DNA of 35,250 bases from Ignavibacteriales bacterium (lineage in GTDB: Bacteria > Bacteroidota > Ignavibacteria > UBA10030), in assembly GCA_026390585.1 (NCBI GenBank), contig JAPLFP010000222.1, positions 1 through 35,250 of the forward strand, written 5' to 3'. Both the position numbers and the translations under genes were made by a program. A model generated the notes under the pieces. It did not search any database. It had not been told where the DNA came from and saw nothing but the letters and a program-made list of their open reading frames with translations. Positions 32,023 through 35,250 of the stretch are shown here, piece by piece. Each line of letters opens with the position of its first letter. The first letter of the stretch is position 1.

Positions 32023-32178
32023 GCCTAACGTTTAGGCAAACCGCCGTTGCGAGCCGCCACTATCGAACTGACTCATTGCTGTGGCAGCGAGCAATGGAGC
32101 GAGCACTTTACATTTAGCCAACGCTTGTTTCAACATCGCCTATTCAGTGTGCGAGCGCCGGTTTGCCGTTTGTTAGGC
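32023..32178 (-). other. attC site A (integron recombination site)
   Basis: R boxes GCCTAAC/GTTAGGC, L boxes GGCAAACCG/CGGTTTGCC, 4-5 nt spacers, 156 bp. Confidence 0.82.
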
Positions 32179-32331
32179 GCAGGCAAAGTTCTTTGTGAAA
32201 AGCGTTTTGCGGCACAAGAAGAACCCGCACCGTGGTCCATGGTTCTTTGATGTTGTTTGCTTAACGAATGGACACTAACGTAGTTGCGTTTGCTGGCACC
32301 GACTGGTAATGATCACTATTTTTGCTATGCG

Positions 32332-33444
32332 TTATTGATCTCGAAGCGTGTATCTAGTATCAAGCACGTGAAGGCCAATGTCGATGACAGCATCTGTGCT
32401 ATTGGACAGTACAACGACCCCTATTCTCTTTTCTTTGTTGAATCCAACGAATGACTTGTAACCGATGGTGCTTCCACTGTGTCCGAGATTTGTTGTTCCA
32501 TATTCGTTCCATATGTGCCAGCCAAGTGCGATATTGTTCCTGGCATGCTTGAGATGCGTCAATTCAAATGTCGATGATAACTTTGAATGAATAAATCCGA
32601 TGTTTGCTGCGAGAAACACAAGCTGGTCGTGTACCGTGGATTTCAGAGCACCGGCTGCGCTAAAGACCGGACTGAATGTCCAATCAACGACGGGATGGCC
32701 TTCCTTGGTATAGGGAGCTGCGATGTTTGATTGGAACCCCGCAGGTATTGTTATGAAGGTATTTCGCAAACCAAGCGGTTCACAGATACGCTTTCGCACA
32801 AGGGTTTCATAATCCACGCCGGCTTCTCGCGCGAGGATGTATCCTAAGAGCCCAACGCCGATGTTTGAATACTCATATCGAGTGCCAATTTCTCGAGACA
32901 GTTCAAAGTGTGATAGGTAGGCATGCAACTGTTCTGTAGAATAATTTGCATATGGCTGATCGACATTTGGAGGAACCAGATTGTCTGGTCGGGCCGGGAG
33001 TCCTGACGTATGAGTGGCTAAGTCATAGAGAGTTATTTCCCTACCGTTGAATGTGGGAGTCCTGACTGAATCGGGCAAGAACTTCGAGATTGGATCACTC
33101 AGGCTCAGTTTTCCCGATTCTGCCATCTCCGCCAACAAAGAGCAAGTGAATAGCTTGGTTATTGAACCAATTCCGTACAACGTGTTCGCATCAGGTCTTT
33201 TGCCACTTCCCTTTTCTATTTCACCGTACGAGAATACACGCTCACCTTTTTCGCTGATGATGCCGACAACGATGCTCGCGCACCTGCCACTGTTGACCTC
33301 ATGTTCAATGTAGTTTCGAACATGATTGAATGATGTGTCTTCTTGAGCGATACATGTACTTGAGAGGAACTCTGTTCCCACTGTGAGCATGACAAGTATC
33401 CAATGCACGCTAACTATTTCAAAAGACAACCAGCGAATGTTCAT
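32332..33444 (-). CDS. serine hydrolase of the class C beta-lactamase/penicillin-binding-like family, cassette 2
   Basis: Signal peptide; GIGSITKLFT (SxxK), YEYSNIGVGLLGYI (YxN), LGHSGSTIGYKS (HSG in place of KTG). Confidence 0.88.
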   Translation of the reverse strand: MNIRWLSFEIVSVHWILVMLTVGTEFLSSTCIAQEDTSFNHVRNYIEHEVNSGRCASIVVGIISEKGERVFSYGEIEKGSGKRPDANTLYGIGSITKLFTCSLLAEMAESGKLSLSDPISKFLPDSVRTPTFNGREITLYDLATHTSGLPARPDNLVPPNVDQPYANYSTEQLHAYLSHFELSREIGTRYEYSNIGVGLLGYILAREAGVDYETLVRKRICEPLGLRNTFITIPAGFQSNIAAPYTKEGHPVVDWTFSPVFSAAGALKSTVHDQLVFLAANIGFIHSKLSSTFELTHLKHARNNIALGWHIWNEYGTTNLGHSGSTIGYKSFVGFNKEKRIGVVVLSNSTDAVIDIGLHVLDTRYTLRDQ

Positions 33445-33527
33445 TTAACCTCGAGATAATGTCGCTAAGCGGTGTTGTCTCATTAGTGGTGCCGCAAAAC
33501 GCCTCTAGCAAATGAATCTTTGCTTGC

Positions 33528-33683
33528 GCCTAACGTTTAGGCAAACCGCCGTTGCGAGCCGCCACTATCGAACTGACTCATTGCTGTGGCGGCGAGCAAT
33601 GGAGCGAGCACTTTACATCTAGCCAAGCCTTGTTTCAACTTCGCCTATCCAGTGTGCGAGCGCCGGTTTGCCGTTTGTTATGC
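33528..33683 (-). other. attC site B
   Basis: R boxes GCCTAAC/GTTATGC, L boxes GGCAAACCG/CGGTTTGCC; 156 bp and nearly identical to site A. Confidence 0.82.
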
Positions 33684-33744
33684 GCAGGCAAAGTTCTATG
33701 TCAATGGCGTTTTGCGGCATATAATGAAGAACCTGCGACGTGCT

Positions 33745-34146
33745 TCACTTCTCTGCTCGATCGGTTTCCTGGCCGATGACATGAACAGAGGACGGTAGTA
33801 CATCCGGTTCGTCGATCGCGGGGATTTTTCGCATCCACACCAACTGTCGAACAGCAGACGATACTCCTCCCACGGCAACACCTACAACAAAGAGAGAGGC
33901 AGAACAGGCTGCAAGAAGGATGAGAAACAAAGAGAGTGCGAAATAGCGCCCCATTTGCATGAGATAGCCGGTGCGCTGATGCAAATATATCTTGCCGTGA
34001 AGGCCATGCCGCCCAGCTCTATATCCAAGCAGGTTGCCCAAATGGGTCGTATCCACAATCAGGTACAGACCCCACACATAGCCGAGCAATAGCGGACGGA
34101 GATTCTGTGGAACCCAAACAAGCGCAACTGTCACAATAACAGTCAT
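33745..34146 (-). CDS. hypothetical membrane protein, cassette 3
   Basis: 133 aa, hydrophobic segments VIVTVALVWV and YFALSLFLILLAACSASLFVVGVAVGG. Confidence 0.55.
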   Translation of the reverse strand: MTVIVTVALVWVPQNLRPLLLGYVWGLYLIVDTTHLGNLLGYRAGRHGLHGKIYLHQRTGYLMQMGRYFALSLFLILLAACSASLFVVGVAVGGVSSAVRQLVWMRKIPAIDEPDVLPSSVHVIGQETDRAEK

Positions 34147-34212
34147 GATAAGCGCAGGAATGAGGTGCCTAGGTTCAACAATTCGCTTCGCATTGACCGT
34201 TGACTGGTACTT

Positions 34213-34374
34213 TTAATTCCCCTCGATTGTGTTAACCGGATAGCTCTGGTAATGATCGGCGTAATGGAGCTGGCGCTCCCGTTCTTGCAGGATGGTGAGC
34301 AGCCAATCGACCCACGCCAAAAGGAAAGTGACAACACCAGCTATCAAAGGGTGAGATGAGAGCCAGTCAATCAT
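34213..34374 (-). CDS. small membrane protein (53 aa), cassette 3
   Basis: Hand translation: MIDWLSSHPLIAGVVTFLLAWVDWLLTILQERERQLHYADHYQSYPVNTIEGN. First ATG after the cassette 5' end; below the ORF-track cutoff. Confidence 0.55.
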   Translation of the reverse strand: MIDWLSSHPLIAGVVTFLLAWVDWLLTILQERERQLHYADHYQSYPVNTIEGN

Positions 34375-34450
34375 GTCAAACCTCGTCACAAGGTGAAACG
34401 GTTGTTATCTAGTGCCGCAAAACGCCTTATCAAAATGTATCTTTGCTTGC

Positions 34451-34637
34451 GCATAACGTCAAGGCAAAACGCAGTGGTTTTTGGTGACCAAGATTTGACT
34501 TCGTTTCGACTGAGCCTATTAAAGACACCAAAAACCATTGAGCGAGTAGACGAGCTCAACTTCGCATTATGACAACCTTGAATTGCGTCTGGCCTGCAGA
34601 CGCTGGCCCGCGAGCGTCGTTTTGCCGTTTGTTATGC
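34451..34637 (-). other. attC site C
   Basis: R boxes GCATAAC/GTTATGC, L boxes GGCAAAACG/CGTTTTGCC, 187 bp. Confidence 0.8.
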
Positions 34638-34725
34638 GCAGCCGCCACTGTAGATGACTTTCGGTTTGTATTGATCTCATGTCAGGTCTCGGTGGTGCAC
34701 GCTTTAGAAGTCAGCCTGAGTTAAG

Positions 34726-34872
34726 TTAGCACCGATCTTTGCCTAGCTGTAACATTTTGGGCACGTCGCCCAGTCGGAATAGGAAACTACCGTTGTCGGT
34801 TGCGCTGTCTTTTTCAAAACTAGCCCTACGAATACCCTCTTTCATTTCTTGAAAAGATAAGCACAAAAACAT
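34726..34872 (-). CDS. possible small protein, cassette 4
   Basis: MFLCLSFQEMKEGIRRASFEKDSATDNGSFLFRLGDVPKMLQLGKDRC; the longer track start at 34947 would fall inside attC site D. Confidence 0.3.
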   Translation of the reverse strand: MFLCLSFQEMKEGIRRASFEKDSATDNGSFLFRLGDVPKMLQLGKDRC

Positions 34873-34930
34873 GGTTAAGTTGCGCCACCGAGTATGAGCA
34901 GAAGACTCTACTACTGATGGTGGCGGTTGC

Positions 34931-35082
34931 GTATAACGTCTAGGCAAAACGCCGTTGCGTTTGCCTCTATTGACTTATTGATTGCGGCAAACGCAATGGA
35001 GCGAACTCATTTCAGTTCGCCAATCTTAGCTTTAACTCTTGCCTATACAGATGAGTGAGCGTCGTTTTGCCGGTTGTTAGCC
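34931..35082 (-). other. attC site D
   Basis: R boxes GTATAAC/GTTAGCC, L boxes GGCAAAACG/CGTTTTGCC, 152 bp. Confidence 0.8.
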
Positions 35083-35250
35083 GCTGCCGCCCCCATACCG
35101 CACTTTCGGTTTGCGGTCTACGACGTCGGTTTCGGCGGCACACGCTTTAAGTCTTCGCATTACAAATCTGAGCTTTACCCATTTCTAAAATCCAGTGTGC
35201 CGCCGATGTTAGATGACTTACGTACCACCGCTCGTGGGGCGGTTGCGGCT

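What the first reader, a model, noticed from the sequence alone, without database searches (positions are those of the whole stretch)
32023..35250. Cassette-specific terminal inverted repeats extend well beyond the attC R boxes
The two inner ends of each cassette are inverted repeats of each other. Cassette 2: TTAGGCGCAGGCAAAGTTCTTTGTGAAAAGCGTTTTGCGGCAC (from 32173) versus minus-strand TTAGGCGCAAGCAAAGATTCATTTGCTAGAGGCGTTTTGCGGCAC (from 33533). Cassette 3: TTATGCGCAGGCAAAG..GGCGTTTTGCGGCA versus TTATGCGCAAGCAAAG..GGCGTTTTGCGGCA. Cassette 4: TTATGCGCAGCCGCCAC versus TTATACGCAACCGCCAC. Cassette 5: TTAGCCGCTGCCGCCCC versus AGCCGCAACCGCCCC at the window end. In a circular cassette these ends would be joined around one attC and lengthen its stem by about 17-45 bp. 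In the array, only neighbours of the same type can pair. I do not recognise this as a standard cassette property; it may affect excision, folding or expression.
Basis: seen in the sequence. Interest (0 to 1): 0.78.

Follow-up and report, generated by a model that had tools for sequence, protein, structure and literature searches.

The report
Integrons with long, self-matching cassette ends
The two ends of each mobile gene cassette in this array are matching inverted sequences that can zip together when the cassette is a free circle, and this belongs to an unusual kind of integron whose recombinase lacks the domain thought to define integron integrases.

Summary
In 30 complete cassettes from this genome and its genus, the start (S) and end (E) of a cassette are inverted repeats well beyond the 7-nt R box. 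Identity at nt 12-19 is 6.13/8 within cassettes and 2.35/8 between them (p about 1e-4). The match ends near nt 19 and is broken by one obligatory mismatch: nt 11 is A in S and G in E, giving G·T on the bottom strand. A 9-11 nt match is already published for classical cassettes; in 27 classical IntI cassettes nothing remains at nt 12-19 and the nt-11 rule is absent.

The cause appears to be the recombinase. The array starts at an attI just downstream of a co-directional tyrosine recombinase (contig overlapping the window end) that lacks the IntI-specific domain and forms a clade sister to IntI. The extrahelical base read by that domain is also missing from these attC sites (0/35 and 1/18, versus 30/41 classical). 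The nt-11 rule recurs in relatives across Ignavibacteriota, Bacteroidota, Spirochaetota and Bacillota.

Best reading: a domain-less integron type in which an outer stem, complete only when a cassette's own ends meet, replaces inner-stem cues. That function is inferred.

The parts
34931..35082 (-). attC of cassette 5 (R'' GGCTAAC ... R' GTTATAC), 152 bp
   Evidence: R/L box scan
34451..34637 (-). attC of cassette 4, 187 bp
33528..33683 (-). attC of cassette 3, 156 bp (R boxes GCATAAC / GTTAGGC: hybrid in the array)
   Evidence: folds
32023..32178 (-). attC of cassette 2, 156 bp
   Evidence: folds
32029..33533 (-). cassette 2 (crossover to crossover)
   Evidence: R' boundaries
33516..33534 (-). 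start arm (S) of cassette 2, GTTAGGCGCAAGCAAAGAT; nt 11 = A
32172..32190 (+). end arm (E) of cassette 2 read on the plus strand, GTTAGGCGCAGGCAAAGTT; nt 11 = G
33489..33502 (-). distal repeat GCGTTTTGCGGCAC, start side of cassette 2
   Evidence: pairs with 32202-32215 in the junction fold
32202..32215 (+). distal repeat GCGTTTTGCGGCAC, end side of cassette 2
33534..34456 (-). cassette 3
34439..34457 (-). start arm of cassette 3; nt 11 = A
33677..33695 (+). end arm of cassette 3; nt 11 = G
34412..34425 (-). distal repeat, start side of cassette 3
33707..33719 (+). distal repeat, end side of cassette 3
34457..34936 (-). cassette 4 (short; no protein family assigned)
34919..34937 (-). start arm of cassette 4, GTTATACGCAACCGCCACC
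34631..34649 (+). end arm of cassette 4, GTTATGCGCAGCCGCCACT
34937..35250 (-). cassette 5, first of the array, continuing onto contig C256 (L044) to attI
   Evidence: 125-bp exact overlap of L044 with the window end; attI and recombinase
35076..35094 (+). end arm of cassette 5, GTTAGCCGCTGCCGCCCCC
35235..35250 (-). start arm of cassette 5 from nt 4 on (first 3 nt on C256)
32011..32029 (-). start arm of the distal cassette 1, GTTAGGCGCCAGCGCAACC
31166..31184 (+). decayed end arm of cassette 1, GTTAAGTGCCGTGCAGCCC, next to a degenerate short attC
   Evidence: nt 11 A/G kept
32332..33444 (-). cassette 2 gene, serine beta-lactamase-like / penicillin-binding fold (PF00144); far below the curated cut-offs of the beta-lactamase families listed
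33745..34146 (-). cassette 3 ORF, no Pfam or NCBIfam family
31185..31991 (-). cassette 1 gene, Schlafen AlbA_2 domain (PF04326)

Best explanation
The terminal repeats are the outer part of the recombination site of an integron-type cassette system whose integrase lacks the IntI-specific (I2) domain. When a cassette's own two ends meet (in the excised circle, or when they pair across single-stranded DNA), the attC hairpin gains a 19-nt outer stem: R box 1-7, an extension 8-10, a fixed G·T (bottom strand) at 11, and a cassette-specific block 12-19. In the array that stem is broken, because each attC joins the end of one cassette to the start of another. I propose that the integrase reads this outer stem, with nt 11 as the mark of polarity, in place of the extrahelical bases and I2 domain of classical integrons, and that this favours free cassettes and bottom-strand use. 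Shown by sequence: the repeats, their statistics, the nt-11 rule, its distribution, the missing domain, the missing extrahelical base. Computed: helix and fold energies. Inferred: that the stem is used in recombination, that it senses the circle, and that it sets strand choice.
For: Within versus between cassettes: nt 12-19 6.13/8 against 2.35/8, p about 1e-4, n=30. nt 11 is A in S and G in E in 29/30, in all 21 first-cassette ends found by a search that ignored nt 11 (read; 47 loci, 60 decoys each), and in 16/17 cassettes of other lineages (0.6 such matches expected). The match stops at nt 20. Classical IntI cassettes: no excess at nt 12-19 (1.89 vs 1.84, n=27) and no A/G at nt 11 (0/27); also 0/9 in classical IntI arrays of the same class. 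attI lies 29-150 nt (mostly 40-110) after most of these recombinase genes, same direction. IntI-specific insert: 67-74 aa in this region against 108-110 in complete IntI. L''-box bulge 30/41 classical, 0/35 and 1/18 here. Bottom-strand helix more stable than top in 27/30, classical 13/27. Junction folds: 4.63 of 8 outer pairs in circles, 0.30 in the array. Nearest solved structure is IntI4.
Against: No experiment. Whole-junction folds do not favour the bottom strand (top -53.9, bottom -53.1 kcal/mol), so the strand preference rests on the outer helix alone. Apart from nt 11, other mismatches show no wobble bias (11 vs 10). Several deeper Bacteroidota loci gave no significant end match, perhaps because attI was misplaced or arrays were cut by contig ends. 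Within-cassette matching alone cannot tell pairing in a circle from pairing across the cassette in array single strands. The HARP-like N-terminal domain is below Pfam's cut-off and missing in some members that still have the outer block, so it cannot be what reads it in all.
Confidence: 0.7

Rival explanations
1. Ordinary: only the published short extension of R-box pairing (9-11 nt) seen in most gene cassettes, to be expected of the footprint of an integrase on the circular attC.
For: PMC2727003 states 9-11 consecutive complementary nt; classical arrays here show it (nt 8-11 2.63/4 within vs 1.09 between), and some in the same class reach nt 13-15 without a break.
Against: A second block at nt 12-19 lies behind an obligatory mismatch in the domain-less group and is absent in 27 classical cassettes.
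Confidence: 0.1
2. Relics of cassette birth: each cassette arose between the arms of a palindrome or terminal inverted repeat, and the arms are neutral leftovers.
For: Arms are cassette-specific, and some extend further with a distal 13-14 bp repeat.
Against: Neutral relics predict neither a fixed A/G at nt 11 nor a common end at nt 19-20. Two homologous cassettes with only 29% protein identity keep near-identical ends, GTTAGCTGCCACCGCAA and GTTAGCTGCCGCCGCA.
Confidence: 0.1
3. Array looping: the arms pair across the cassette in array single-stranded DNA and bring the two flanking attC sites together for excision, rather than acting in the circle.
For: The same helix forms in either setting; the sequence data fit both equally.
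Against: Arms are 0.2-2.7 kb apart and compete with local attC hairpins; no dependence on cassette length was tested.
Confidence: 0.2
4. The ends are gene-expression signals (terminators or leaders) rather than recombination elements.
For: Start arms lie upstream of the cassette genes.
Against: The signal is matching between the two ends of one cassette, up to 2.7 kb apart, which transcription does not require; no Rfam family matched.
Confidence: 0.03

Closest known systems
Classical integrons (IntI with the I2/additional domain, attC with extrahelical bases; Vibrio, class 1)
   Same: Tandem cassettes, R''-L''-L'-R' hairpin attC, GTTRRRY crossover, attI beside the integrase gene; recombinase nearest to IntI by profile, structure and tree.
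   Different: I2 domain absent, L''-box extrahelical base absent, an added outer block nt 12-19 with A/G at nt 11, integrase transcribed towards attI.
[quoted passage not shown]
   Same: Integrase transcribed towards attI (PMC3607928).
   Different: Whether Treponema IntI has the I2 domain was not tested here; domain, extrahelical bases and outer stems there remain unchecked.
Xer recombinases and CTXphi integration
   Same: No I2 domain; a folded single-strand site without extrahelical bases (PMC4792948).
   Different: No own cassette array; the domain-less clade lies with IntI apart from Xer, with modest support (88/59).
'Integron-like' subgroup of tyrosine recombinases (Smyshlyaev 2021, PMC8138268)
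   Different: In the passages read, no arrays, att sites or end repeats were linked to the members without it.

Membership tests
Integron (general: integrase + attI + array of attC cassettes) | Tandem genes separated by hairpin attC sites with AAC/GTT R boxes | tested here: met
   4 sites in the window, 3-4 on C120, up to 9 per contig in relatives
Integron (general: integrase + attI + array of attC cassettes) | Tyrosine recombinase gene next to an attI at the start of the array | tested here: met
   L044:2518-3681 and attI; same layout in relatives
Integron (general: integrase + attI + array of attC cassettes) | Site-specific insertion and excision of cassettes | not testable with these tools
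   needs an assay; a near-duplicate of cassette 2 on C120 only suggests mobility
IntI integron integrase | IntI-specific additional (I2) domain | tested here: not met
   67-74 aa against 108-110 aa between the KDR and TLRH motifs; IntI4 residues 180-238 unmatched; TIGR02249 223.9 bits, cut-off 265
IntI integron integrase | Catalytic residues and core fold of a tyrosine recombinase | tested here: met
   PF00589 1.7e-37; invariant R239, K264, H329, R332, H355, Y364 in the alignment
Classical attC site | Extrahelical base in the L'' box | tested here: not met
   0/35 in the genus, 1/18 in other lineages, 30/41 in classical controls
Classical attC site | Pairing of cassette ends limited to about 9-11 nt | tested here: not met
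   pairing to nt 19 with a fixed mismatch at nt 11

The most novel reading that the evidence does not exclude
A separate, widespread integron type, sister to IntI, without I2 domain and without extrahelical bases, marks polarity with a G·T pair in an outer stem that exists only when a cassette's own ends meet. Because the Xer outgroup also lacks I2, this may be the state before I2 arose, which would bear directly on the 'chicken-egg paradox' of I2 and attC raised in PMC4792948.
Probability: 0.5. Interest if true: 0.9.

Novelty: new variant of a known kind. Interest (0 to 1): 0.8.

Why it matters
The I2 domain is described as defining IntI and necessary for cassette recombination (PMC9668308, citing Messier and Roy 2001), and searches that demand it or a classical attC could score such arrays as integrase-less clusters. 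A natural group lacking both the domain and the base it reads, yet carrying ordered cassette arrays, makes the origin of single-strand recombination in integrons testable. The nt-11 rule also gives a simple way to find cassette boundaries in these arrays.

Tried and rejected
A first general attC finder was too strict and found one site; family-specific motifs replaced it. Wobble bias across the whole stem: none apart from nt 11. Homologous cassettes with different arms, needed to show compensatory change, were not found: one homologous pair, with near-identical arms. Arrays beside the IntI subclade L217-L225, to separate transcription direction from the I2 domain, were not found. Rfam: no match. 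Considered and dropped: transposon-like terminal repeats, expression signals, the published short extension as a full account.

Full report
What is in the window. The window is a whole contig (C20) of a 4.7 Mb draft genome. From about 31166 to its right end it holds a cassette array on the minus strand with attC sites at 32023-32178, 33528-33683, 34451-34637 and 34931-35082. The right end overlaps contig C256 (L044) by exactly 125 bp. There a 387-aa tyrosine recombinase (L044:2518-3681) is followed by attI (...GCTA|GTTAGCC) and the start of cassette 5. [quoted passage not shown] The closest named relative is Melioribacter, 59% identical over a partial match, and it falls among same-class rows in the tree, so the host is probably a member of Ignavibacteriota; this is an inference.

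The observation. Write S for a cassette's start and E for the reverse complement of its end, both from the G of GTTRRRY. In 30 complete cassettes from the window genome and its genus, E resembles S of the same cassette far more than S of others: extension score beyond the R box 11.9 against 3.2, with no permutation of 20,000 above 6.5. By position, identity is about 0.9 at nt 5-10, exactly 0 at nt 11, 0.83-0.90 at nt 12-16, falling to 0.47 at nt 19 and to background from nt 20. At nt 11, 29 of 30 cassettes have A in S and G in E. Examples: GTTAGGC GCAACGCAAGTGC / GTTAGGC GCAGCGCAAGTGC; GTTATGT GCCATTTGCACG / GTTATGT GCCGTTTGCACG. In the bottom strand this pair is G·T, in the top strand A·C. 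A subset has a further distal repeat (GCGTTTTGCGGCAC in cassettes 2 and 3). The finding's interval starts at 32023; the decayed distal cassette 1, with nt 11 still A/G, reaches to about 31166.

What is known and what is not. Bouvier et al. 2009 (PMC2727003) state that self-pairing in most cassettes extends beyond the R boxes to 9-11 consecutive nt. I recover this in 27 classical cassettes beside IntI genes of Vibrio, Pseudoalteromonas, Halieaceae, Pseudoduganella, Shewanella and Microbulbifer: nt 8-11 identity 2.63/4 within and 1.09 between, but nt 12-19 1.89 and 1.84, no signal. Nine cassettes beside full IntI genes of the window's own class show contiguous extensions of varying length and no A/G at nt 11. 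The outer block and the nt-11 rule therefore follow the recombinase, not the host lineage. The classical site lists were chosen by my scan and reviewed by eye, so they are a sample and not a census.

The recombinase. It matches IntI4 (2A3V) best of solved structures, but in two pieces that skip IntI4 residues 180-238; TIGR02249 gives 223.9 bits, under its cut-off of 265. In an alignment with named relatives, the stretch between the KDR and TLRH motifs is 67-74 aa in this group, 108-110 aa in the complete IntI rows (one IntI row shows 90 aa with a gap) and 63-77 aa in the Xer-type enzymes. A maximum-likelihood tree puts 41 members of the group on one branch (88/89) next to IntI (100/100), with Xer-type enzymes outside (88/59, modest). 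Columns filled in under 30% of rows were dropped from that tree, which should remove most of the insert itself (19 of 71 rows carry it). Many members carry an N-terminal domain resembling HARP (PF07443, E 3e-4 to 2e-3 in three relatives, 0.19 in one, none in the window's own protein; all below the cut-off). A model of the Spirochaetota member L179 (mean pLDDT 83) has IntI4 as its best PDB match. The own genome has no IntI above the cut-off, whereas 40 of 200 relatives do, so both systems occur in this class.

Distribution. Of 200 relatives, 49 have a close homologue (E<=1e-60). In most loci with sequence downstream, an attI-like GTTRRRY with A at nt 11 follows the gene by roughly 30-150 nt. 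Taking the first start after each gene in 47 loci and asking where its reverse complement lies next to AAC within 5 kb, 21 loci gave a match better than all 60 decoys, against under one expected. These include Bacteroidia L172, Flavobacteriales L176, Spirochaetota L179, Melioribacter L180, Bacteroidota L190 and Peptococcaceae L199. The search did not score nt 11; reading the 21 alignments, it is A in S and G in E in every one. In some loci the start used was that of a later cassette (e.g. L109). A second search through inner attC features found 17 more cassettes in eight loci (0.6 expected), 16 with A/G.

The sites. In classical attC sites the L'' arm carries an extrahelical base: a one-nucleotide bulge improves the L-box alignment in 30 of 41, 29 of them on the L'' side. 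In the domain-less group this holds for 0 of 35 sites of the genus and 1 of 18 elsewhere, with an uninterrupted L box of about 10-12 nt (the 18 sites are). Escudero et al. 2016 (PMC4792948) describe extrahelical bases and I2 as co-evolved and ask how either could be selected first. Here both are missing together.

Energetics. With DNA parameters, the 20-nt R+outer helix is -20.8 kcal/mol for the bottom strand and -19.3 for the top; bottom is the more stable in 27/30, against 13/27 in classical cassettes. With the cassette's own start it is -21.3, with the next cassette's start -9.9 (20 of 21). In whole-junction folds of 27 cassettes, circles average -53.1 and array sites -42.7 kcal/mol, with 4.63 and 0.30 of the eight outer pairs formed; the top-strand circle averages -53.9, so the full junction shows no strand preference.

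Interpretation. The simplest account is that the arms belong to the recombination site: a stem completed only when a cassette's own ends meet. The fixed nt 11 and the common end at nt 19 argue for a read-out by protein or geometry rather than neutral leftovers. A homologous pair with 29% protein identity that keeps near-identical ends points the same way, though one pair is weak evidence. Whether the stem acts in the circle or across the cassette in single-stranded array DNA cannot be told from sequence. That it replaces I2 and the extrahelical base in setting polarity is a proposal.

Limits. Many loci are draft contigs cut near the array. Thresholds for sites were set by me. The statistics treat cassettes as independent; some share arm families, and permutations within the set allow for that only in part. 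The literature search covered an open-access library only, so a prior description elsewhere is possible; Smyshlyaev 2021 already notes an insertion 'not fully conserved' in the integron-like subgroup (PMC8138268).

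Noticed in passing
L026 (contig C120) 239-3204: Two IS110-family transposase genes (PF01548, PF02371) lie between the two halves of an attC, split near its R' box, as expected of elements that target attC.
   Followed up: partly
L026 6133-6412 and window 32172-32460: A near-duplicate of cassette 2 stands elsewhere in the same genome, so the array contains copies; neighbouring attC sites differ.
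   Followed up: no
window 33489-33502, 32202-32215; L109, L128, L133 and others: A distal end motif (about GCGTTTTGCGGCAC) recurs in several cassettes of the genus, about 31-46 nt from the R-box G, on both ends.
   Followed up: partly
window 29362-31011: A DUF5131 gene (29362-30153) lies beside an ORF of 284 aa without Pfam family (30157-31011), both on the minus strand beyond the last recognisable cassette.
   Followed up: no
L119, L121, L149 and the search for related loci set: A HARP-like N-terminal domain on domain-less integrases. HARP is known from annealing helicases (general knowledge), so a role in folding single-stranded sites is conceivable.
   Followed up: partly
window 34937-35250: Cassette 5 carries no evident gene and contains further internal inverted repeats (GGCGGCACAC / GTGTGCCGCC).
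   Followed up: no
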